DNA from: Cohaesibacter marisflavi
GTDB taxonomy: Bacteria > Pseudomonadota > Alphaproteobacteria > Rhizobiales > Cohaesibacteraceae
DNA length: 64,000 nt
Assembly (NCBI RefSeq): GCF_900115225.1
Contig: NZ_FOVR01000001.1
Coordinates: forward strand, 1-64,000
Direction: 5' to 3'
Shown here piece by piece: positions 51,937 through 61,571 of this stretch (position 1 is its first letter; each line of letters opens with the position of its first letter). The notes below the pieces were generated by a model, which saw only the letters and a list, made by a program, of their open reading frames with translations, made no database searches and was not told where the DNA came from. A program made the position numbers and the translations under genes.

Positions 51937-53250
51937 TCAGTAGACCGCAGCATAGGCTGCGCAGCGCTCTGCTATGTCCTTGCCATCCAGATAGGCTAGC
52001 TCGCCTTTCTTGTGAGTCAGATAGACATCGACAAACTGGTCGGGGAACCAGCTGCGAACGGTCTCGTTGGCATTGAGACGTGCGAGAGCTGACTCCAATG
52101 TTTCAGGCAGGCGCACATAGCCACGTTCGCTAAGCGCACTTTCGCTGAGAAGGGAAAGATCTTCCTCCGTCACCTTCGGCATAGGCAGCTGGTCCTTGAT
52201 GCCCTGTGTGCCAGCGAAAAGAATGGCCGCAAGGGCAAGGTGAGGCGAGGCTGAACAATCGGCAGCGCGGAACTCGAAATTATATTGCCGAGCGATGCTT
52301 TCCGGATCGGTCGATGTGACCGGGCAGATGCGAACGGAGGCTTCGCGATCCCGGAAGCCAAGATTGTTGTAGGCCGCGCTCCAGCGATGAGGCGTCAAGC
52401 GCAAATAGGAGATATCCGAAGGGGCCGTGAAAGCCACGATGCTATCGAGATATTTGAGCACACCCGCAATGAAGGAACCGGTTATCGGCGACATGCCCGC
52501 AACACCATTGGCATCATAGGTGGCCGGTTCGCCAGCCTCAGTCACAAAGCTCATATGAATATGCACGCCGTTGCCAACGGAGGCCGGGTCCTGAATCGGC
52601 GTGAAAGTCACCGCCTCGCCACAGCGCGCTGCCGTCATGCGGGTTACTTCGCGCAGGATGAGGGATTCATCGGCGGCGCGATGGTTCTGGCTCGGGCCGA
52701 TGGTTACTTCATACTGGTCTGGCCCATATTCCTTCATGAAGGTATCGGGATGCAAACCGGCCTGTTCAAGCGCAGCCATCAGGGTTTCGCCAAACTGGCG
52801 GCGGCGGGTGAAGCCATTCAGGCCATAGGGTTCGCCCTCTGGGGCTACTCCGGCAAGAAACTGGAATTCATGCTCGAATGCAGCGATCAGTTCAACGCCG
52901 CCAGCCTCTTTCAGGCCAGCCAGTGCGGATTTGAGAATGGAGCGGGTGCAGCAGGTCCAGGGCTGGCCATCGAGATCGGTGATATCCCCCAGCATGAAGC
53001 GTTCAATGGGGCCGCCATCTTCAAAATCGAGCTCAACATTGGCATCCGCATCGGGAATGAGCAGCAGGTCGCCAAGCGAGCCGAATGGACTGTCGGCAAT
53101 CGCGTCAAAACAGGTAATCTGCACGTTGGTCGGCGTCCAGCCGACACCACGCTTGAGACGCTTTTGCATTTCCTTCAAGGGAAAGGCCTTGCCGCGGGAT
53201 TTACCCGCAATGTCTGAGGTCAGGGCGAAGACGAGAGGATTGGTGATCAC
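51937..53250 (-). CDS. Glutamine-synthetase-family ligase (gamma-glutamyl-amide type)
   Basis: A 437-residue GS-fold enzyme. The N-terminal beta-grasp domain is followed by catalytic motifs: AAFEHEFQFL (metal-binding glutamates), GNGVHIHMSF (histidine of the active site), and the ATP/phosphate region LRLTPHRWSAAYNNLGFRDR with EASVRICP. The canonical NRSA-type arginine loop and the adenylylation site of GlnA are changed, so it is probably not housekeeping glutamine synthetase but a ligase joining glutamate to an amine, as PuuA does. The GTG at 53250 was chosen: GGAGAA lies before it, and an earlier ATG would overlap the rpiR-type gene, which ends two bases upstream. Confidence 0.85.
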   Translation of the reverse strand: MITNPLVFALTSDIAGKSRGKAFPLKEMQKRLKRGVGWTPTNVQITCFDAIADSPFGSLGDLLLIPDADANVELDFEDGGPIERFMLGDITDLDGQPWTCCTRSILKSALAGLKEAGGVELIAAFEHEFQFLAGVAPEGEPYGLNGFTRRRQFGETLMAALEQAGLHPDTFMKEYGPDQYEVTIGPSQNHRAADESLILREVTRMTAARCGEAVTFTPIQDPASVGNGVHIHMSFVTEAGEPATYDANGVAGMSPITGSFIAGVLKYLDSIVAFTAPSDISYLRLTPHRWSAAYNNLGFRDREASVRICPVTSTDPESIARQYNFEFRAADCSASPHLALAAILFAGTQGIKDQLPMPKVTEEDLSLLSESALSERGYVRLPETLESALARLNANETVRSWFPDQFVDVYLTHKKGELAYLDGKDIAERCAAYAAVY

Positions 53251-53252
53251 TT

Positions 53253-54092
53253 TTATTCTCCAAAGTCTAATCGCATCGAATCCCAATGTTCGATGCGTTG
53301 CTTGGTTGTTTCCCAATGGGAGTCGGCGATGTTGGTCAGAGTCGCCTCAATGACGGCAAAGGCACCCGAATAACTATCCCATAAAGTATCGGTATTGATT
53401 GGAATGGCCAGAATCTCGGACGCATTGCGCGAGACAGGTGACATCCAGCGGTCGGTGATGAGAACCACATGTGCCTTGCGTTCTTCGGCCGCCTTGCGTG
53501 CCAAATGCGTCAGATTGGACTGGTAACGTCTGAAATCGGCGATCACGAGAATGTCCTTGGCCCGCATACGCAGCAAATATTCCGGCCACATTTCCGGATC
53601 GGAAGGCAGGTGATAGACCTTCTGGCGGATCTGGCGCAAATGGCGGGACATATATTGCATGAGCGTATCACTCATCCGGCCGCCGATAAAATAAAGGGAG
53701 CGTTTCGGATCGGACAACATCTGGCAGATCCGATCAAACTGAGCCTCGGAAATAGACTGCGTGGATTCTTCGAGAATGCCTGACACACGATCAAGGAAGC
53801 TGGCCATATAGGCGCCATGCATGGGCTTGCTCATGGATTTGCGCTCGACCGGAGAGGTCTGGATCTGCTTGAGTTCGTCGATCAAATGACGTTGAAAGTC
53901 CTGAAAACTCTGAAACCCGATTTTGGCAACAAAGCGCGAAATGCTTGGTGCCGATGTCTGCGCCCGCTCTGCCAGCGCCTGAATCGGTTCCAGGCCAGCA
54001 AAGGGATAGTCCAGCAAAAGCGTTGTGCTCAGGCGTCTTTCCGTAGCGGTAAAGTCGGCGGAATGGGCCTCGATCTGGTCGCGAACTGTCAT
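53253..54092 (-). CDS. RpiR-family regulator with SIS domain
   Basis: A 279-residue regulator. The N-terminal HTH (LLDYPFAGLEPIQALAERAQ; TSAPSISRFVAKIGFQSFQD) lies at about 25-75. The SIS domain begins near 125 (RSLYFIGGRMSDTLMQYMSR; ILVIADFRRYQSNLTHLARK; HVVLITDRWMSPVSRNASEI). SIS domains usually bind phosphosugars, but some relatives of this class in transporter operons respond to other ligands. It is the first gene of the minus-strand unit and faces the ABC transporter operon, whose promoter contains a fitting operator. Confidence 0.88.
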   Translation of the reverse strand: MTVRDQIEAHSADFTATERRLSTTLLLDYPFAGLEPIQALAERAQTSAPSISRFVAKIGFQSFQDFQRHLIDELKQIQTSPVERKSMSKPMHGAYMASFLDRVSGILEESTQSISEAQFDRICQMLSDPKRSLYFIGGRMSDTLMQYMSRHLRQIRQKVYHLPSDPEMWPEYLLRMRAKDILVIADFRRYQSNLTHLARKAAEERKAHVVLITDRWMSPVSRNASEILAIPINTDTLWDSYSGAFAVIEATLTNIADSHWETTKQRIEHWDSMRLDFGE

Positions 54093-54154
54093 GTCGTTCT
54101 CCCTTCAGAACCATAATGCGAAATGAAATTAATTTGTCAAATACATTTTTTTTG

Positions 54155-54184
54155 TTGACATTGAAATTCTGTTTTCATTATGGT
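54155..54184 (+). promoter_or_regulatory. Promoter with embedded operator before the Liv-type operon
   Basis: TTGACA at 54155-54160 and TATGGT at 54179-54184 are spaced 18 bases apart. Between them TGAAA (54162-54166) and TTTCA (54173-54177) form a perfect inverted repeat with a 6-base spacer. A repressor bound there would block RNA polymerase directly. Confidence 0.65.
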
Positions 54185-54210
54185 CACTAGCAATTAGTTG
54201 GAGATTTATG

Positions 54211-56022
54211 ATGCTTGTCACCTCTGGTCGTCAGCTGTTTTATTCAGTTTTTGCCATACTCGCCCTCGCTTTGATCGCATCGGCAATTGCTTGGTATATG
54301 GGCCCGGCAAGCCAGCGTATTCTCGTTGTTTTCTTCGTTTCGCTCATCGCGGTGGTCGCTCAGGGCGTCTATTGCGGTAACAGCGGTATCATGTCCTTCG
54401 GGCATCTTTCCTTCATGGCGATCGGGGCCTATGCCTCTTCGCTTCTGACGGTGCCCGCCATGATGAAAGCGGCCACCCTGCCCAAGCTGCCTCATTGGCT
54501 GGCCTCCACGGAGACGAGCCTATTGCCCGCCATTCTGGCCGCGCTCGTCGTGGTGGCGCTGGTCGCAATCATCACCGGCGTGGTGGTCGGCAAGCTTCAG
54601 GGGGAGGCGGCAACCATCGCAACGCTTGGATTGTTGATCATCGTGCATGGCATCCTGATCGGCTGGCGCGATGTGACGCGCGGCTCCGGTTCCTTCTTCG
54701 GCGTGCCCCGCGAGACGACGATGTGGGTTGCCATGATCGGATGTGTCATCGCACTCATCATCGCGCGGCTCTACAGGGACTCCATATCGGGTCTCAAGCT
54801 GCGCGCCAGTCGTGAAAATGCCATTGCGGCGGCAGCGGTTGGTGTCAATATCAAACGTGAGCGGCTGGTCTCCTGGGTTATCAGCGCTGTGCTGATGGGC
54901 CTGTCCGGTGCCTTGATGGCGCATTTCCTCGGTGCCTTCAGTCCCAAGAATTTCTATTTCGTTGATACCTTCCAGTATCTTGCCATGCTGATCGTTGGCG
55001 GCATGACCACCGTAACCGGCGCCATTTCCGGCGCGGTGGTGATCACCATTGTCACAGAAATCCTGCGCCATCTGGAAAGCGGCTTCTCGCTCGGTTTCAT
55101 TGAGGTGCCTCAGGTTTTTGGCACGACACAAATCGGCATCGCGCTGCTCATTCTGTTTGCCATGTTCCGCAAGGCCGATGGCTTGACTGGCCTCAAGGAA
55201 TGGGAAGAGCGCTTCATCAAGCCCAAACGCAAAATTCTCTCGGGCGCCTCTCTGCAAGCAGCAGAGCCCGATGGCATCCTGACATCGAAGGGCATGACCA
55301 TGCGCTTTGGCGGGCTCGTTGCGGTCAATAATGTCGATTTCAAATTGATGCCCGGCGAGATCGTGGGCCTGATCGGGCCAAACGGTTCTGGCAAGACGAC
55401 ACTGCTCAACATGCTCTCCGGTGTTCTGAAACCAAGCGAAGGCACCTTCAAGATCGCGGATACGCTGCTCGACGGTGTGCCTTCGCATAAAGTGGCTGAA
55501 CATGGCATCGCGCGGACCTTCCAGAATATTCGTCTGTTCAACCATTTGAGCGTTTTCCAGAATGTCTTGGTCGCAGCGCTTTCCACCCGCGGGGGCAAGG
55601 ATGCGGAAAGCCGTGCCCAGACAGCGCTGGAACGCATGGGCATGAGCAAATTTGCCGAAATGGATGCTGGAACCCTGTCTTACGGTGATCAGCGTCGGGT
55701 GGAGATTGCCCGCGCGCTTGCCTGTCAGCCAAGCCTCTTGTTTCTCGATGAGCCAGCCGCAGGCATGAACCGCGAAGAGACCGACGCGCTGATGGAAATG
55801 CTGCGCGGTCTCACCAAGGATCTGGGTATCGGCATTCTGCTTGTCGACCACGATCTGAAGCTTATCAACCAATTGTGTGACCGCATCGCCGTGCTCAATG
55901 AAGGCACCCTGATTGCGGCCGGCACGCCTGCTGAAATTCGCAAAAATCCCGCTGTTGTCGAGGCTTATCTCGGCGCCAGCACGGATCAGAATGATGACCC
56001 TGAAGGCAATCAGGGCAGATGA
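54211..56022 (+). CDS. Fused branched-chain-type ABC permease and ATPase (LivM-LivG)
   Basis: A 603-residue fusion. Residues 1-330 are a LivM-type permease (GIMSFGHLSFMAIGAYASSL; LLIVHGILIGW; VGGMTTVTGAISGAVVITIV). Residues 350-600 are a LivG-type ATPase: Walker A GPNGSGKTT near 389-397, Q-loop ARTFQNIRLF, signature LSYGDQRRVEIARAL, Walker B LLFLDEPAAGMN, switch VDHDLKLI. In most bacteria these are two genes. The ATG at 54211 has GGAGA six bases upstream; the adjacent ATG at 54208 is also possible. It is the first gene of an operon with livK-, livF- and livH-like genes. Confidence 0.92.
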   Translation: MLVTSGRQLFYSVFAILALALIASAIAWYMGPASQRILVVFFVSLIAVVAQGVYCGNSGIMSFGHLSFMAIGAYASSLLTVPAMMKAATLPKLPHWLASTETSLLPAILAALVVVALVAIITGVVVGKLQGEAATIATLGLLIIVHGILIGWRDVTRGSGSFFGVPRETTMWVAMIGCVIALIIARLYRDSISGLKLRASRENAIAAAAVGVNIKRERLVSWVISAVLMGLSGALMAHFLGAFSPKNFYFVDTFQYLAMLIVGGMTTVTGAISGAVVITIVTEILRHLESGFSLGFIEVPQVFGTTQIGIALLILFAMFRKADGLTGLKEWEERFIKPKRKILSGASLQAAEPDGILTSKGMTMRFGGLVAVNNVDFKLMPGEIVGLIGPNGSGKTTLLNMLSGVLKPSEGTFKIADTLLDGVPSHKVAEHGIARTFQNIRLFNHLSVFQNVLVAALSTRGGKDAESRAQTALERMGMSKFAEMDAGTLSYGDQRRVEIARALACQPSLLFLDEPAAGMNREETDALMEMLRGLTKDLGIGILLVDHDLKLINQLCDRIAVLNEGTLIAAGTPAEIRKNPAVVEAYLGASTDQNDDPEGNQGR

Positions 56023-56069
56023 AGACCTTCCAAGACAAACCATCACCACACCAATTCCAGAGGATAAAA

Positions 56070-57227
56070 ATGAAAAAGGCACTCTTTCTTACGAGCCTTC
56101 TCGCTCTGTCCGCGCTTAGCCAGCCGGTTCTGGCTGAAGATCTGAAAATCGGCCTCGCAACGGCCCAGACCGGTGGTCTGGCTCCTTATGACGCACCGGT
56201 TATTGAAGGCGTTAACATCGCCGTTGACGAAATCAACGCTGCTGGCGGCATTGATGGCAAATACAAGATCGACCTGATCGACAAGGATGTGCGTTCTGAT
56301 GCCGCGCAGACCTCTATCGCAACTCAGGAACTGGTCGACCAGCAAGTATCCGTTCTGGTGTTGCCATGCGATGCCGATCCGGCGCTGGCTGCCATTTCCA
56401 TTGTCGCTGCCGCTGAAATTCCGGCTATCTCCACCTGCGCCTCTTCGCCAACTCTGCCGCTGGTCGGTGGTGACTATATGTTCGCCAACTTCCCCGGCGA
56501 CAACGTGCAGGCAACCGTTTCGGCTGAATGGGCATGGGGCGAAGGCTACAAGTCGGCTTACATCATCTATAGCCCGGATGCGCAATACACCACGCTGCCT
56601 CTCTACTTCAAGGAAGTGTTTGGCAAGCTGGGTGGTGACATTTTGGGCGAAGACACCTATTCCATTGGCCAGCAGGATTTCTCTGCGATTGCAACCCGCA
56701 TCGCCGCGCTTGACCCTCAGCCGGATGTCATCATGACCGCCGCCTTCGAGCCCGACTTCCCGTCTCTTCTGAAGGCCCTGCGTGCGGCTGGCGTGAAAAG
56801 CCAGATGATCGGCTCGGATGGTATCGATAGCCCGACCACCTTCTCCCTTGGGGATGTTGTTGAAGGCACTGTCTTCACCACGGCAGGCTTTGCCACCGAA
56901 GGCAGCCCGATGGAAGCATTCAACAAGAAATACAAGGAAGTCACCGGCAAGGAAACCCAGACAGTCTTTAACGCGGTTGGCTATGACCTGATCAAGGTTA
57001 TCGAAGCCGCCGTCAAGGAAGCAGGTTCCACCGATCCGAAGGCCTTGCGCGATGCGATTGCCAATCTTGAAAATGTTCAGGGTGCAACCAGCCTGATCAC
57101 CTACAAGGGCACCAACGGCATGCCTGTGCGTCAGGTGTCTCTGGTGCGCGTCACCGGTGGCGACCGCGAATTGATCGGCCAGCCGAGCCCGACTGCTGAT
57201 CTGGTTCCTGCACCTCGTATGCAGTAA
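56070..57227 (+). CDS. ABC transporter substrate-binding protein, LivK/Leu-Ile-Val type
   Basis: A 385-residue periplasmic protein. It has a signal peptide (FLTSLLALSALSQPVLAEDL), then the type I periplasmic fold (IGLATAQTGGLAPYDAPVIE; VDEINAAGGIDGKYKIDLID). The ligand loop includes PAISTCASSPTLPL, close to the serine/threonine region that holds the amino group of amino-acid ligands. It therefore binds an amino-acid-like or amide compound. An ATG 17 codons earlier gives no signal peptide and is rejected. Confidence 0.9.
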   Translation: MKKALFLTSLLALSALSQPVLAEDLKIGLATAQTGGLAPYDAPVIEGVNIAVDEINAAGGIDGKYKIDLIDKDVRSDAAQTSIATQELVDQQVSVLVLPCDADPALAAISIVAAAEIPAISTCASSPTLPLVGGDYMFANFPGDNVQATVSAEWAWGEGYKSAYIIYSPDAQYTTLPLYFKEVFGKLGGDILGEDTYSIGQQDFSAIATRIAALDPQPDVIMTAAFEPDFPSLLKALRAAGVKSQMIGSDGIDSPTTFSLGDVVEGTVFTTAGFATEGSPMEAFNKKYKEVTGKETQTVFNAVGYDLIKVIEAAVKEAGSTDPKALRDAIANLENVQGATSLITYKGTNGMPVRQVSLVRVTGGDRELIGQPSPTADLVPAPRMQ

Positions 57228-57246
57228 GTCAAGGAGCGTTGATCCA

Positions 57247-57960
57247 ATGGAACCGCTGTTGAAAGTATCCTCGCTGCATGTGCGGTATGGCGCTGTACAA
57301 GCGGTTCGCGGGGTCGACTTTGAAATCCGGGAAGGCGAGATTGTCGCCTTTCTGGGCGCCAATGGGGCGGGCAAGTCTTCCACGCTCAATGCCATTGCCG
57401 GGTTGGTGGAGGCCCATGCGGGTACCATCGAGTTTGCCGGACGGGACATTACCGATCTGGCACCGGAAACACTGACCCCGTTGGGGCTGGCGCTTTCGCC
57501 CGAAGGTCGCCGTGTATTTCCTGCGCTGTCTGTCGCTGAAAATCTGTTGATGGGTGCCTATAGCGTCAAGGACAAGACAAAGGTCAAAGATGCATGGGAG
57601 CGGGTCTATTCGCTCTTTCCCATTCTGCATGACCGCAAGGACCAGTTGGCCGGAACTCTTTCGGGTGGTCAGCAGCAAATGCTCGCGGTCGGGCGCGCTC
57701 TGATGAGCGGCCCGCGCCTGTTGCTGCTTGATGAGCCATCCCTCGGCCTTGCGCCGTTGATCGTCGAGCAGGTGTTTGAACTGATCACCATCCTCAGAGA
57801 TCAGAAGGTGACCATTGCGCTTGTCGAGCAGAATGTCGCCAAGAGCCTCGAGATCGCCGACCGAGGCTATATTCTGTCTGGCGGTCAGGTTGTCGGCGCC
57901 GGAGCTGCTTCGGATCTGATGTCCGAGGGCGGCCTTGAAGATACATTCCTTGGAGCATGA
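57247..57960 (+). CDS. Branched-chain-type ABC transporter ATPase (LivF)
   Basis: A 237-residue ATPase. Walker A is in FLGANGAGKSSTLNAIAGLV, the Q-loop in LGLALSPEGRRVFPALSVAE, the signature in LSGGQQQMLAVGRALMSG, Walker B in LLLDEPSLGLAP and the switch histidine position is replaced by VEQNVAKS, as is normal in LivF. It overlaps nothing upstream but ends within the start of the livH-like gene region. It works with the fused LivMG protein. Confidence 0.92.
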   Translation: MEPLLKVSSLHVRYGAVQAVRGVDFEIREGEIVAFLGANGAGKSSTLNAIAGLVEAHAGTIEFAGRDITDLAPETLTPLGLALSPEGRRVFPALSVAENLLMGAYSVKDKTKVKDAWERVYSLFPILHDRKDQLAGTLSGGQQQMLAVGRALMSGPRLLLLDEPSLGLAPLIVEQVFELITILRDQKVTIALVEQNVAKSLEIADRGYILSGGQVVGAGAASDLMSEGGLEDTFLGA

Positions 57961-57962
57961 CA

Positions 57963-58856
57963 ATGGAACTTTTGCTGCAACAAACTGTCAATGCCATCGC
58001 GTTGGGGGGCACCTATGCCCTGCTTGCACTGGGGCTGGCCGTTGTCTTCTCCATAATGGGGCTGATCAACTTTGCCCATGGCGAATTGATGACCATTGCG
58101 GGGTATGTGTTGATGTATTGCGGCCTGGCAGGCGTGCCCTTTGCTATTGCCGCAGCACTGGCCATTGGTGCGGCCATGTTGGCCGCCGTGTTGATGGAAA
58201 TGATTGCCTTTAGGCCCGTGCGCAACGCCTCGGGGGAGACCATGCTGGTCACCTCTTTTGCGGTGTCCATGGTACTGCAAGTGCTGTTCCAGAACTTTAT
58301 CGCCGCGCGGTCTCAGCCAGTGCTGCTGCCGCAGCTTCTCTCCGATAGCATCAGCCTTTTCGGACTGGTCATCGGGGTGAACAAGATCGCCGCGATTGTG
58401 GCGACCATCGTCATGCTGGCCTTTCTCGACTGGTTCATGCGCAAACAGAAACACGGTATCGCCATGCGTGCTGCGGCAGAAGATTTTGCCGTCGCCCGGC
58501 TGATGGGCATTCGCGCCAACACGGTGATTTCCGCCGCCTTTGCTCTCTCTGGCCTGTTGGCCGGAGTGGCCGCTGTGCTCTGGGTTTCCCAGCGCGCGTC
58601 GGTTGACCCGCTGATGGGCTTTGCACCGGTGCTGAAAGCTTTCATCGCTGCCATTCTCGGCGGATTGGGCTCTCTGCGGGGCGCTGTAGCCGGTGGCTTC
58701 GTGCTCGGTTTCATAGAGATCTATCTGGCGGCCTTCCTGCCGTCTGACATGCAGGAGTTCCGAGAGCCGATTGGGCTGGGCATCGTCGTCTTCATCATGC
58801 TATTCCGTCCGAATGGACTAATCCCTGCCGCCAGCCTGAAGGCTGAGAAAGTGTAA
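57963..58856 (+). CDS. Branched-chain-type ABC permease (LivH)
   Basis: A 297-residue permease with about eight helices. Family stretches are NAIALGGTYALLALGLAVVF at the N-terminus, MGLINFAHGELMTIAGYV and ILGGLGSLRGAVAGGFVLGF in the C-terminal half. The start at 57963 has GGAG seven bases upstream; an ATG at 57957 overlaps the livF stop. Its place after livF instead of before livM is an unusual operon order. Confidence 0.9.
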   Translation: MELLLQQTVNAIALGGTYALLALGLAVVFSIMGLINFAHGELMTIAGYVLMYCGLAGVPFAIAAALAIGAAMLAAVLMEMIAFRPVRNASGETMLVTSFAVSMVLQVLFQNFIAARSQPVLLPQLLSDSISLFGLVIGVNKIAAIVATIVMLAFLDWFMRKQKHGIAMRAAAEDFAVARLMGIRANTVISAAFALSGLLAGVAAVLWVSQRASVDPLMGFAPVLKAFIAAILGGLGSLRGAVAGGFVLGFIEIYLAAFLPSDMQEFREPIGLGIVVFIMLFRPNGLIPAASLKAEKV

Positions 58857-58871
58857 TCAAGGTTCCCTTTC

Positions 58872-59624
58872 ATGACGCAATTGTTGCAAGCTGGCGATCC
58901 TTCGCCGTCCCTCATTCTCAATCCCGAAGGGACATGCCCCATCCTGTTAGCCTGCGAGCATGCCGGGCAGGGGATTCCCAAAGCTCTGGGCGATCTTGGC
59001 CTCAGCCGTGAGCAGCTGGACATGCATATTGGCTGGGACATCGGTGCCGCGGCGCTCACGCGTCTGCTCTCCGAGCGCCTCAATGCCACCGCCATTCTGC
59101 AGTATTACAGCCGTCTGGTCATCGACTGCAATCGCCCGCCCGAAGCCCCGGATTCCGTGCCCGAAGTCAGCGATAAGGTGACCATTCCGGCCAATGTGGA
59201 TGCGGATAACAAGCAGGCCCGCGTGGACGAGATTTTTACGCCCTATCAGGGGCAAGTGTCGCGCCTGCTCGATAGTGGCCGCTACAAGGCTGCGCTTTCC
59301 ATTCACAGCTTCACACCCGTCATGCAGGGCGTGCCGCGCCCATGGGATATCGGGTTTCTGTTTGGCTCCCATGACGACACATCTCGCAGGCTTGCCGCCT
59401 TCCTTGAGAAGGCCTACCCTTGGATGACCATCGGTTTCAACGAGCCCTATCAGGTGAGCGGCCTGTCTGATTGGTTCGTCCCCCGCCATGGGGAAGCAAG
59501 AGGCCTGCCGCATGCTCTTATCGAGGTGCGCAACGATCATATTTCAGACAAGGACGGTCAGGAAAAATGGGCCGATATTCTTGCTGCATCCTTTAGGCAT
59601 TTTCTTGAAGAGGTTCCTGCATGA
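58872..59624 (+). CDS. N-formylglutamate amidohydrolase-family enzyme
   Basis: A 250-residue metallo-hydrolase. Conserved blocks are LLACEHAGQGIP (metal ligands), MHIGWDIGAAALTRLLSERL, YYSRLVIDCNRP and SIHSFTPVMQGVPRPWDIGF. Characterised relatives (HutG type) remove formate from N-formylglutamate in histidine breakdown. No other histidine genes are present, so the substrate here is probably another N-acyl or N-formyl amino acid. It lies 16 bases after the permease gene and overlaps the next gene by four bases. Confidence 0.88.
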   Translation: MTQLLQAGDPSPSLILNPEGTCPILLACEHAGQGIPKALGDLGLSREQLDMHIGWDIGAAALTRLLSERLNATAILQYYSRLVIDCNRPPEAPDSVPEVSDKVTIPANVDADNKQARVDEIFTPYQGQVSRLLDSGRYKAALSIHSFTPVMQGVPRPWDIGFLFGSHDDTSRRLAAFLEKAYPWMTIGFNEPYQVSGLSDWFVPRHGEARGLPHALIEVRNDHISDKDGQEKWADILAASFRHFLEEVPA

Positions 59625-60256
59625 CTTTGACCCGTGACATACCCCTTGATCCTTCCGTCTCTGCGCTGTTGTTTGTAGACGTGCAGAATTTCAGTTGCAG
59701 CCGCAAGGGCGGAGAGTTTGCGCATCTCAGCGAGCAGGAACTGGAGGAAAAATGCGGCTGGTTCTTTGAAAAGGCCGAAACCGAAATCGTGCCCAACATG
59801 CAGGCTCTTCAGGCCAAATGCCGGGAGAAGGGCATCGAGGTGATGTATACCACCATCGAAAGCCTGACCTTTGACGGACGGGATCGCTCGCTTGATTACA
59901 AAATTACCGGTTTCAATGTGCCCAAGGGCTCTTGGGATGGCAAGGTGATCGACGAGATTGCGCCGCAGGGTGATGAAATCGTGCTGCCCAAAAGCTCGTC
60001 ATCGGTCTTCGTGTCTACCCATATCGACTATATCCTGCGCAATCTAGGCGTCAAACAGCTGGTCATCTGCGGCATGCTGACAGACCAGTGCGTGGAGAGT
60101 GCCATTCGTGATGCCTGCGATCTTGGCTATTTGGTGACCGAAGTGACTGATGCTTGCCTGACGCTCACTCAAGAGCGCCACGACAATTCTCTCAAGGCGA
60201 TCAAGGGCTACTGCAGACAGATCACGACAGCCCAGTTGCTTGAAGAACTGGGATAG
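59621..60256 (+). CDS. Isochorismatase-fold cysteine hydrolase
   Basis: A 211-residue enzyme of the isochorismatase superfamily. The catalytic triad is visible: D20 in LLFVDVQNF, the lysine in EIVLPKSSSSVF and the cysteine in GMLTDQCVESAIRDA. The superfamily includes amidases such as N-carbamoylsarcosine amidohydrolase, ureidoacrylate hydrolase and nicotinamidase. It overlaps the preceding gene by four bases and ends the operon before a strong terminator. Amide or carbamoyl hydrolysis on the imported compound is the best guess; the substrate is unknown. Confidence 0.88.
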   Translation: MTLTRDIPLDPSVSALLFVDVQNFSCSRKGGEFAHLSEQELEEKCGWFFEKAETEIVPNMQALQAKCREKGIEVMYTTIESLTFDGRDRSLDYKITGFNVPKGSWDGKVIDEIAPQGDEIVLPKSSSSVFVSTHIDYILRNLGVKQLVICGMLTDQCVESAIRDACDLGYLVTEVTDACLTLTQERHDNSLKAIKGYCRQITTAQLLEELG

Positions 60257-60302: not shown

Positions 60303-60464
60303 TTCTTTCCCTGATTTTCTCGGCATACAGCCTGCTATTCAGGGGCAAGGCAATTCATGAATCTGCCTCATTGCCGCTATTGAAAAGGTCCGTCTAATCA
60401 ATTTCTCCCGCGATCCACACATAGGACGTGGACATTCACCAACATGCCCTTAGGAGAACATGAC

Positions 60465-61571
60465 ATGACGAACAAGACCGGACAGGAAGTTGCCATTGAA
60501 ACACCGGATGCGGGCCGCCGCAATCTGCTTAAACTGGCTGGCGTCAGCTCTGCGACCATCGCAGCAGCATCTCTCGTAGCCGCTCCCGCCATGGCCAAGG
60601 CAAAAAGTCTCAATCTCACGGATGAGTGGGACAAGACCTTTGAAAAGAGCGACGCCGTTGATCACAAGAAGGTGACCTTTACGAACCGCTATGGCATCAC
60701 TCTGGCTGGCGATCTCTATATCCCGAAAGAGCGTTCGGGCGACAAACTGCCTGCGCTCGCTGTCGCTGGTCCGTTTGGCGCAGTGAAGGAGCAAGCCGCA
60801 GGTCTATATGCTCAGACCATGGCCGAGCGCGGTTTTGTTACGGTTGCGTTTGACCCTTCCTTCGTGGGCGAAAGTCAGGGCGCAGACTTGAGCGTTGCTT
60901 CCCCGGACATCAACACCGAAGACTTCATGGCTGCAGTTGATTTCCTTGGTTTGCATGAAGCTGTTGATCAGGAGCGTATCGGCATCATCGGTATCTGTGG
61001 CTTTGGTGGCATGGCTCTGAATGCAGTGGCAGCGGACAAACGCGTCAAGGCCGTGGCAACGGCCAGCATGTATGATATGTCGCGCGTCATGGCCAAAGGC
61101 TATTATGATGCGATGACACCAGAACAGCGCGCCGAAGCCATGAAAAGCATGAGCTACCAGCGCTGGGAAGACGCCAAATCAGGCGAAGCTGCACTGGCCG
61201 GAGGCCTGCCCGACACGCTCGAAGGCATCGATGATCCGGTGATCACCATGTATTATGGTTACTATAAAACCGACCGTGGCTACCATCCGCGTTCTGTTAA
61301 CTCCAATGCTGGCTGGACGGTCACCAACCCGCTGTCCTTCATGAACATGCCGCTGTTGACCTATGTTGACGAAATCTCTCCGCGCCCAATGCTACTGATT
61401 GCTGGCTCGGAAGCGCATTCAAAATATTTCAGCGATGATGCCTATGCGTCTGCGGCAGATCCGAAAGAGTTGATGATCATCGACGGAGCTGACCATTGCG
61501 ACCTCTATGATCAGGTGGACATCATTCCATTCGACAAGCTTCAGTCCTTCTTTGACAAAAATCTCGCGTAA
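60465..61571 (+). CDS. Tat-exported dienelactone-hydrolase-like alpha/beta hydrolase
   Basis: A 368-residue hydrolase. It has a signal with adjacent arginines (GRRNLLKLAGVSSATIAAAS) ending near AMAKA. In the catalytic fold the nucleophile elbow is GICGFGG, with cysteine in the nucleophile position as in dienelactone hydrolases. The acid and histidine are probably in LLIAGSEAHS and IDGADHCDLYDQ. GGAGAA lies before the ATG at 60465. The substrate is unknown; it is a single-gene unit enclosed by hairpins. Confidence 0.82.
   Translation: MTNKTGQEVAIETPDAGRRNLLKLAGVSSATIAAASLVAAPAMAKAKSLNLTDEWDKTFEKSDAVDHKKVTFTNRYGITLAGDLYIPKERSGDKLPALAVAGPFGAVKEQAAGLYAQTMAERGFVTVAFDPSFVGESQGADLSVASPDINTEDFMAAVDFLGLHEAVDQERIGIIGICGFGGMALNAVAADKRVKAVATASMYDMSRVMAKGYYDAMTPEQRAEAMKSMSYQRWEDAKSGEAALAGGLPDTLEGIDDPVITMYYGYYKTDRGYHPRSVNSNAGWTVTNPLSFMNMPLLTYVDEISPRPMLLIAGSEAHSKYFSDDAYASAADPKELMIIDGADHCDLYDQVDIIPFDKLQSFFDKNLA

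What the first reader, a model, noticed from the sequence alone, without database searches (positions are those of the whole stretch)
51937..60256. Uncharacterised nitrogen-compound pathway: GS-like ligase, RpiR, Liv importer, formylglutamate-type and isochorismatase-type hydrolases
Two divergent units share one promoter region. One encodes a glutamine-synthetase-fold ligase with an altered active-site loop and a regulator. The other encodes an amino-acid-type importer and two amide-bond hydrolases overlapping by four bases. No histidine, purine or creatinine genes accompany them. A possible scheme is import of an N-acyl or carbamoyl compound, stepwise removal of formate or ammonia plus carbon dioxide, and capture of the freed amine as a gamma-glutamyl amide. 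I know of no described pathway with this set.
Basis: inference. Interest (0 to 1): 0.75.

Follow-up and report, generated by a model that had tools for sequence, protein, structure and literature searches.

The report
Widespread glutamyl-tagging amine breakdown gene set
A set of neighbouring genes shared by many bacteria probably imports a nitrogen-rich amino compound, tags it with glutamate, splits ammonia off it and removes the tag again; I found no description of the set as a pathway, and its exact food molecule is still a guess.

Summary
In a Cohaesibacter genome, a GS-like ligase and RpiR lie divergent to a Liv-type importer, a PF05013 (FGase) and an isochorismatase-type (ICH) hydrolase. 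Of 80 named loci anchored on the ICH, FGase is present in 75, GS in 72, RpiR in 65, Liv in 63. A divergent version (RpiR-ICH-GS-FGase) sits in four unnamed non-alphaproteobacterial genomes whose ligases are 59-72% identical to PA5508, published to prefer bulky amines. The shared promoter region carries conserved face-to-face elements.
The FGase is not HutG; its sister FGases lie in other GS clusters, like those where PF05013 is predicted in print to hydrolyse gamma-glutamylglycine, and poly-gamma-glutamate hydrolases are among its nearest folds beyond the family. Best reading: GS adds a gamma-glutamyl tag to an amine, ICH removes ammonia, FGase takes the tag off. Some relatives add an amino-acid-amide/caprolactam racemase homologue, pointing to amino-acid amides or aminolactams. 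New variant of known gamma-glutamylation pathways; substrate unproven.

The parts
51937..53250 (-). GS-fold gamma-glutamyl-amine ligase (PA5508 type), GTG start, 437 aa; flap Glu missing (PHRWSAAY)
   Evidence: PF00120 222.9 bits and PF16952 61.7 bits; best PDB hit 4hpp 330.9 bits; start codon
53253..54092 (-). RpiR-type regulator (HTH_6 + SIS), putative regulator of both units
   Evidence: PF01418, PF01380
54093..54207 (.). shared divergent promoter/operator region: face-to-face GTCAA ... TTGAC boxes with TGAAA..TTTCA-type elements
   Evidence: element at 54155-54177 is the only match in the genome at up to 1 mismatch
54208..56022 (+). LivM-LivG fusion: permease domain + ATPase domain of the importer
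   Evidence: PF02653 + PF00005 + PF12399 in one ORF
56019..57227 (+). periplasmic substrate-binding protein (likely start 56070)
   Evidence: PF13458 199.6 bits
57247..57960 (+). LivF-type ATPase
   Evidence: PF00005; LivF model 243 bits, below its cut-off of 441
57957..58856 (+). LivH-type permease
   Evidence: PF02653
58872..59624 (+). PF05013 metallo-amidohydrolase, not HutG; proposed gamma-glutamyl-amide hydrolase (tag off)
59621..60256 (+). isochorismatase-type cysteine hydrolase with D20-K124-C157; proposed amide/carbamoyl hydrolase releasing ammonia
   Evidence: PF00857 121.4 bits; residues; overlaps FGase by ATGA

Best explanation
An import-and-breakdown module for a small amino compound that works by a removable gamma-glutamyl tag. 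The Liv-type importer brings in the compound. The GS-like ligase joins its amine to the gamma-carboxyl of glutamate at the cost of ATP (tag on). The isochorismatase-type hydrolase then cleaves a terminal carboxamide or carbamoyl group of the tagged compound and frees ammonia. The PF05013 enzyme hydrolyses the gamma-glutamyl amide bond and returns glutamate plus an amino acid (tag off). RpiR controls both divergent units from elements between them. Shown here: gene content, conservation, presence of the expected catalytic residues, the conserved operator-like elements, that the FGase belongs to a non-HutG subfamily often found beside GS-family ligases. Inferred: the reactions, their order, that RpiR binds the elements. 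The likeliest substrate class is alpha-amino-acid amides or aminolactams, because several relatives add an amino-acid-amide/aminocaprolactam racemase homologue (my estimate for this substrate class alone about 0.35; the confidence below is for the tag-on/tag-off mechanism).
Confidence: 0.5

Rival explanations
1. One reading: an N-formyl or N-carbamoyl compound is imported, FGase removes formate and/or ICH removes ammonia plus carbon dioxide, and the ligase finally captures the freed amine as a gamma-glutamyl amide.
For: FGase is in Pfam family PF05013, named after N-formylglutamate amidohydrolase; the ICH's best NCBIfam models are RutB and biuret hydrolase, which act on carbamoyl groups (their reactions recalled).
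Against: FGase is far below the HutG model and outside the HutG-like clade; its subfamily co-occurs with GS-family ligases of two different clades; ending with a gamma-glutamyl amide leaves the tag on, with no other hydrolase in the set.
Confidence: 0.2
2. A detoxification or scavenging unit for bulky or aromatic amines: glutamylation by the PA5508-like ligase neutralises them, and the two hydrolases recycle the conjugates.
For: PA5508 prefers bulky amines (PMC6478659 passage); PA5506-PA5509 are over-expressed together in PAO1 carrying most of the plasmids tested (PMC6246594 passage).
Against: The set comes with a dedicated importer in most relatives (Liv in 63 of 80 loci), which fits feeding better than defence; ICH would have no role on plain amines.
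Confidence: 0.15
3. The substrate is a ureido compound (ureido amino acid or N-carbamoyl amine): ICH hydrolyses the ureido group after glutamylation and FGase removes the tag.
For: ICH resembles RutB and biuret hydrolase most among NCBIfam models, though far below their cut-offs (79.1 of 377.95, 61.7 of 370); N-carbamoylsarcosine amidohydrolase is among its PDB hits.
Against: The racemase homologue in relatives fits amides and lactams better; nothing that I scanned in the window is specific to ureides.
Confidence: 0.15

Closest known systems
P. aeruginosa PA5506-PA5510 genes with the ligase PA5508 (PDB 4hpp)
   Same: Window ligase's best PDB match is 4hpp. That PA5506, PA5507 and PA5509 are RpiR, ICH and FGase is recalled; PMC4409342 calls PA5507 and PA5509 hypothetical; PMC9397018 lists PA5510 as amino acid/polyamine permease.
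   Different: Window version is split into two divergent units and uses a Liv importer in place of the permease; no pathway for these genes was found (PMC9397018 lists PA5508 under polyamine use).
Gamma-glutamylation pathway for ethanolamine (GlnA4, SCO1611-SCO1615; Chromohalobacter)
   Same: PF00120 ligase plus a PF05013 hydrolase predicted to take the glutamyl group off.
   Different: Window set has no Fe-ADH or aldehyde dehydrogenase among its nine scanned genes; it has an isochorismatase-type hydrolase, and its ligase is only 24-28% identical to the ligases of the look-alike clusters L045, L046, L048, L053, L064, L068.
Puu/Pau putrescine pathway (PuuA-PuuD-PuuE-PuuP)
   Same: Gamma-glutamyl amine ligase plus transporter plus hydrolase.
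   Different: No PuuD (C26 hydrolase) nearby; no oxidase or aldehyde dehydrogenase among the nine scanned genes; ligase scores 239.8 against a cut-off of 650 for gamma-glutamylputrescine synthetase.
Alpha-amino-epsilon-caprolactam racemase / amino acid amide racemase (2zuk, 5m46, 6gio)
   Same: Relatives of the module carry homologues of this racemase beside GS/FGase/ICH.
   Different: Not in the scanned part of the window and not in its genome (best 35%).

Membership tests
Glutamyl organic amine synthetases (GoaS/PuuA/PA5508 type) | GS catalytic fold | tested here: met
   PF00120 222.9 bits, PF16952 61.7 bits
Glutamyl organic amine synthetases (GoaS/PuuA/PA5508 type) | nearest solved relative is a gamma-glutamyl amine ligase, not an ammonia-using GS | tested here: met
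   4hpp 330.9 bits, next PDB hit 108.1 bits
Glutamyl organic amine synthetases (GoaS/PuuA/PA5508 type) | glutamylates an organic amine and not ammonia | not testable with these tools
   needs an assay
Gamma-glutamylputrescine synthetase (NF045547) | curated model cut-off 650 bits | tested here: not met
   239.8 bits
HutG N-formylglutamate deformylase | TIGR02017 cut-off 278.75 bits | tested here: not met
   23 bits; outside the HutG-like clade of 22 rows
PF05013 metallo-amidohydrolase | Pfam gathering score and family fold | tested here: met
Gamma-glutamyl-amide hydrolase role | hydrolyses a gamma-glutamyl amide bond | not testable with these tools
   indirect only: and published prediction
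RutB ureidoacrylate amidohydrolase | TIGR03614 cut-off 377.95 bits | tested here: not met
   79.1 bits
Biuret hydrolase BiuH | NF050097 cut-off 370 bits | tested here: not met
   61.7 bits
Isochorismatase-like cysteine hydrolases | Pfam score and Asp-Lys-Cys triad | tested here: met
   121.4 bits; D20, K124, C157 invariant in 15 rows. That these are the catalytic triad is recalled
Liv/HAAT importer | binding protein, two permease domains, two ATPase domains | tested here: met
   LivG, LivF and LivH models all below cut-off
PA5506-PA5510-type module | RpiR, ICH, PA5508-like ligase and FGase together | tested here: met
PA5506-PA5510-type module | amino acid permease as transporter | tested here: not met
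   Liv importer instead
Puu/Pau pathway | PuuD-type hydrolase beside the ligase | tested here: not met
   no C26 match near 51.9-60.3 kb of C28
Ethanolamine gamma-glutamylation pathway | Fe-ADH and aldehyde dehydrogenase beside the ligase | tested here: inconclusive
   none among the nine genes scanned; the rest of the window was not scanned
Amino-acid-amide/lactam racemase present | ACLR-type class III PLP protein in the genome | tested here: not met
   best match 35%

The most novel reading that the evidence does not exclude
The module is a previously undescribed route for breaking down alpha-amino-acid amides (or aminolactams) through gamma-glutamylated intermediates: an optional amide racemase equalises D and L forms, the PA5508-type ligase tags the amine, the isochorismatase-type enzyme deamidates the tagged amide, and a PF05013 enzyme removes the tag. 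It would give the PA5506-PA5510-type genes and the industrially used amino-acid-amide/caprolactam racemases a natural pathway, and would recast the non-HutG part of the 'N-formylglutamate amidohydrolase' family as gamma-glutamyl-amide hydrolases.
Probability: 0.33. Interest if true: 0.8.

Novelty: new variant of a known kind. Interest (0 to 1): 0.6.

Why it matters
The annotated plasmid relatives seen here name the second PF05013 gene N-formylglutamate amidohydrolase; if it removes gamma-glutamyl tags, such names mislead metabolic models in the same way wherever they are used. The module is common in the marine and plant-associated Alphaproteobacteria that one search returned, and its ICH occurs in 46 Klebsiella plasmid records (one neighbourhood read), so its unknown substrate may be a nitrogen source of wide use. 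It also makes two open questions testable with four purified enzymes: what the genes around PA5508 do, and what amino-acid-amide racemases are for.

Tried and rejected
HutG/histidine reading of the FGase: rejected on score and tree. Polyamine (Puu) reading: rejected, ligase far below the model and no PuuD near. Homarine pathway: considered from memory because FGase-like deformylation could fit; one search listed two papers that mention homarine in passing, and no oxygenase was seen among the nine scanned genes; dropped. Transaminase reading of the class III PLP neighbours: rejected for the stand-alone kind after PDB comparison of four of them; a second, ~1000-residue kind fused to an APH-type kinase and an M23 domain is a different protein and left unexplained. 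Searching a regulon by the operator: only the window's own site was found at up to one mismatch, with one match of the reversed control pattern too, so no further pathway gene came from it.

First FGase tree was spoiled by wrong-frame ORFs that I had extracted (very long branches); I discarded it and rebuilt it, where the program still warns that two long branches meet. The label 'PotG' (72 of 80) is cross-matching of ABC ATPases and was dropped. The 15 genomes were chosen by me, most because they had an FGase beside a GS, so 23 of 32 is biased upward. The 80 loci are the best 80 of 491 relatives and overlap in part with the 40 (for example L074 and L036). The 40 were picked from the best 44 places; 4 (G068, G194, G270, G216) were skipped. 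In one search, a looser pattern gave 20 of 68 against a shuffle mean of 1.2, and the full two-sided pattern only 12 of 68 (shuffles 0). Of the six racemase places, three lie in modules, one (L242) does not within a truncated 12.9-kb stretch, two were not examined. A structure of the ICH was not obtained nor a plain Foldseek listing.

Papers: PMC6246594, PMC4409342, PMC11335346, PMC6478659, PMC9397018, PMC6529630, PMC11391342 and PMC7431475 were seen as passages only; others as search listings with abstract starts; Ladner 2012 was seen only as cited in these.
Full report
What was checked. The window is G000:C28:1-64000; the nearest named relatives of its ICH are Cohaesibacter (91 and 83%). Unit one (-): RpiR 53253-54092 and a GS-fold ligase that most likely starts at GTG 53250, two bases after the RpiR stop. 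Unit two (+): a LivM-LivG fusion, binding protein, LivF, LivH, a PF05013 enzyme (FGase) and an isochorismatase-type hydrolase (ICH), with four-base ATGA overlaps at three junctions.

Is it more than chance? I searched 297 genomes of the order with the FGase and fetched 40 of the best 44 places other than the window's own (four skipped). A GS-family gene lies in the fetched stretch of 30 of 40, and 20 of 40 have both ICH and a ligase at least 40% identical (counted). From the other side, the ICH alignment found 491 relatives among genome contigs; of the best 80, FGase is present in 75, GS in 72, RpiR in 65, a Liv importer in 63, GS+FGase+RpiR in 61 and these with Liv in 55. Misses: no GS in 8, no FGase in 5, no RpiR in 15, no Liv in 17; some of these loci are truncated by contig ends. 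The transporter is the variable part: Liv importers of several subfamilies, PotFGHI in Antarctobacter, an amino acid (APC) permease in a Klebsiella and a Pantoea plasmid.

A divergent version. Plasmid records with an ICH only 40-50% identical still show RpiR, ICH, GS and FGase together, with or without Liv and a class III PLP protein (Roseomonas, Shinella, Ensifer, Sulfitobacter, Nitratireductor; of the six such records read, one, Bradyrhizobium, lacks the set). In a phylum-wide sample, 19 of 398 genomes have the ligase at E <= 1e-60. Four of them, outside the class and unnamed (three of one family, Pseudomonas-like by my inference), show RpiR-ICH-GS-FGase in a row, with ligases 72, 65, 72 and 59% identical to 4hpp; in three a gene labelled as permease follows, the fourth contig ends. 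4hpp is PauA7/PA5508 of P. aeruginosa (PMC6529630 passage). Passages in PMC6478659 say PA5508 was not induced by polyamines and prefers bulky amines; a passage in PMC6246594 reports PA5506-PA5509 over-expressed together. That PA5506, PA5507 and PA5509 are the RpiR, ICH and FGase is my recollection; PMC4409342 calls PA5507 and PA5509 hypothetical.

The ligase. Its best solved relative is 4hpp at 330.9 bits, the next is 108.1. In the flap, an ammonia-using GS has PGYEAPV; this protein has PHRWSAAY and 4hpp PHHWSAAY, without Glu. It is below the cut-offs of all five NCBIfam models it matched, GS and gamma-glutamylputrescine synthetase. So it is best filed with the glutamyl organic amine synthetases (GoaS; name from PMC11335346, where PA5508 stands on a branch next to the main GoaS branch), substrate open.

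The ICH keeps Asp20, Lys124 and Cys157 in 15 of 15 aligned rows. It is the best conserved of the four core genes (72-91% in the 80 loci) and resembles RutB and biuret hydrolase far below their cut-offs. Known relatives split terminal carbamoyl or amide groups and release ammonia (recalled).

The racemase clue. In 13 of the 80 loci, and in the Klebsiella, Pantoea, Sinorhizobium, Shinella, Rhizobium, Maritalea and Sulfitobacter plasmid stretches read, a class III PLP protein of this kind (or, before comparison, annotated as class III aminotransferase) stands in or beside the set; identities among them are. Four were compared with the PDB: they match alpha-amino-epsilon-caprolactam racemase and amino acid amide racemase chains at 392, 524, 406 and 781 bits (the last to 6gio), and the next families at 278 bits or less. 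The homologue is rare in the order (4 of 121 genomes at E <= 1e-90, 6 places), yet three of the six places are inside such modules; one is not, within a truncated stretch, and two were not examined. PMC7431475 and PMC11391342 passages describe these racemases as acting on amino-acid amides, lactams, esters and a thiolactone. The window's genome lacks it (best 35%), while Cohaesibacter haloalkalitolerans has it next to its ligase (L074).

Regulation. The window and 70 relatives (found among 100 loci by a distance rule; 68 distinct sequences in all) have a divergent region between RpiR and the opposite unit. GTCAA-N6-20-TTGAC occurs in 46 of 68 (dinucleotide shuffles: mean 0.2, maximum 2) and TTGACNNTGAAA in 34 of 68 (mean 0.0, maximum 1). 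The rows are related, so this is a footprint, not 68 independent events. Read as promoters, the -35 boxes face each other and a TGAAA..TTTC element sits in each spacer; that RpiR binds it is inference. The right-hand element occurs once in the genome at up to one mismatch, at 54155-54177 (one hit of the reversed control).

Mechanism proposed. Import; gamma-glutamylation of the amine (ligase); removal of ammonia from a terminal amide or carbamoyl group (ICH); hydrolysis of the gamma-glutamyl bond (FGase); both units under RpiR. The carboxylate of the tag could serve as a handle for the ICH (inference). All steps lack assays. Amino-acid amides or aminolactams explain all four enzyme types at once, but that rests on neighbours in relatives.

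Novelty. Ten searches of the paper library showed me no description of this gene set as a pathway; most subscription papers are not held, so this is a limited negative. The design is a new variant of known gamma-glutamylation pathways; the parts are members of known families.

Noticed in passing
L154 (NZ_LR890752.1 128503-153123): The module sits on an IncFIB Klebsiella plasmid (46 Klebsiella plasmid records have the ICH; this one neighbourhood read) with a permease and the racemase homologue, beside an IS5-family transposase: a metabolic trait that may move among enteric bacteria.
   Followed up: partly
L086:10649-13729; also L080, L087, L113, L136: About 1000-residue protein joining an APH-type kinase, an M23 domain and a class III PLP domain (domains scanned in L086) beside the module in 13 of 80 loci; looks like a kinase plus phospho-lyase fusion, role unknown.
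   Followed up: partly
L045, L046, L048, L053, L064, L068: A second kind of cluster: another GS clade with FGase, RpiR and, variously, aldehyde dehydrogenase, Fe-ADH, GMC or class III PLP genes, resembling the printed ethanolamine gamma-glutamylation pathway.
   Followed up: partly
window 54208-56022: Permease (LivM) and ATPase (LivG) of the importer are fused in one 604-residue protein; relatives match it over both parts in several loci.
   Followed up: no
L136 (Nocardioides marinus DP1N28-1): An actinobacterial record carries the alphaproteobacterial arrangement at 73% ICH identity: recent transfer or contamination of the assembly.
   Followed up: no
L155, L160, L162, L164, L171: Sinorhizobium, Shinella, Rhizobium and Nitratireductor versions carry a second isochorismatase-type gene in the same cluster.
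   Followed up: no
window 60444-61571: An alpha/beta hydrolase (S15/S9-like) with a signal-like N-terminus follows the ICH on the same strand after a 187-base gap; found at the same place in L034 but not in the DNA held for L035 and L036.
   Followed up: no
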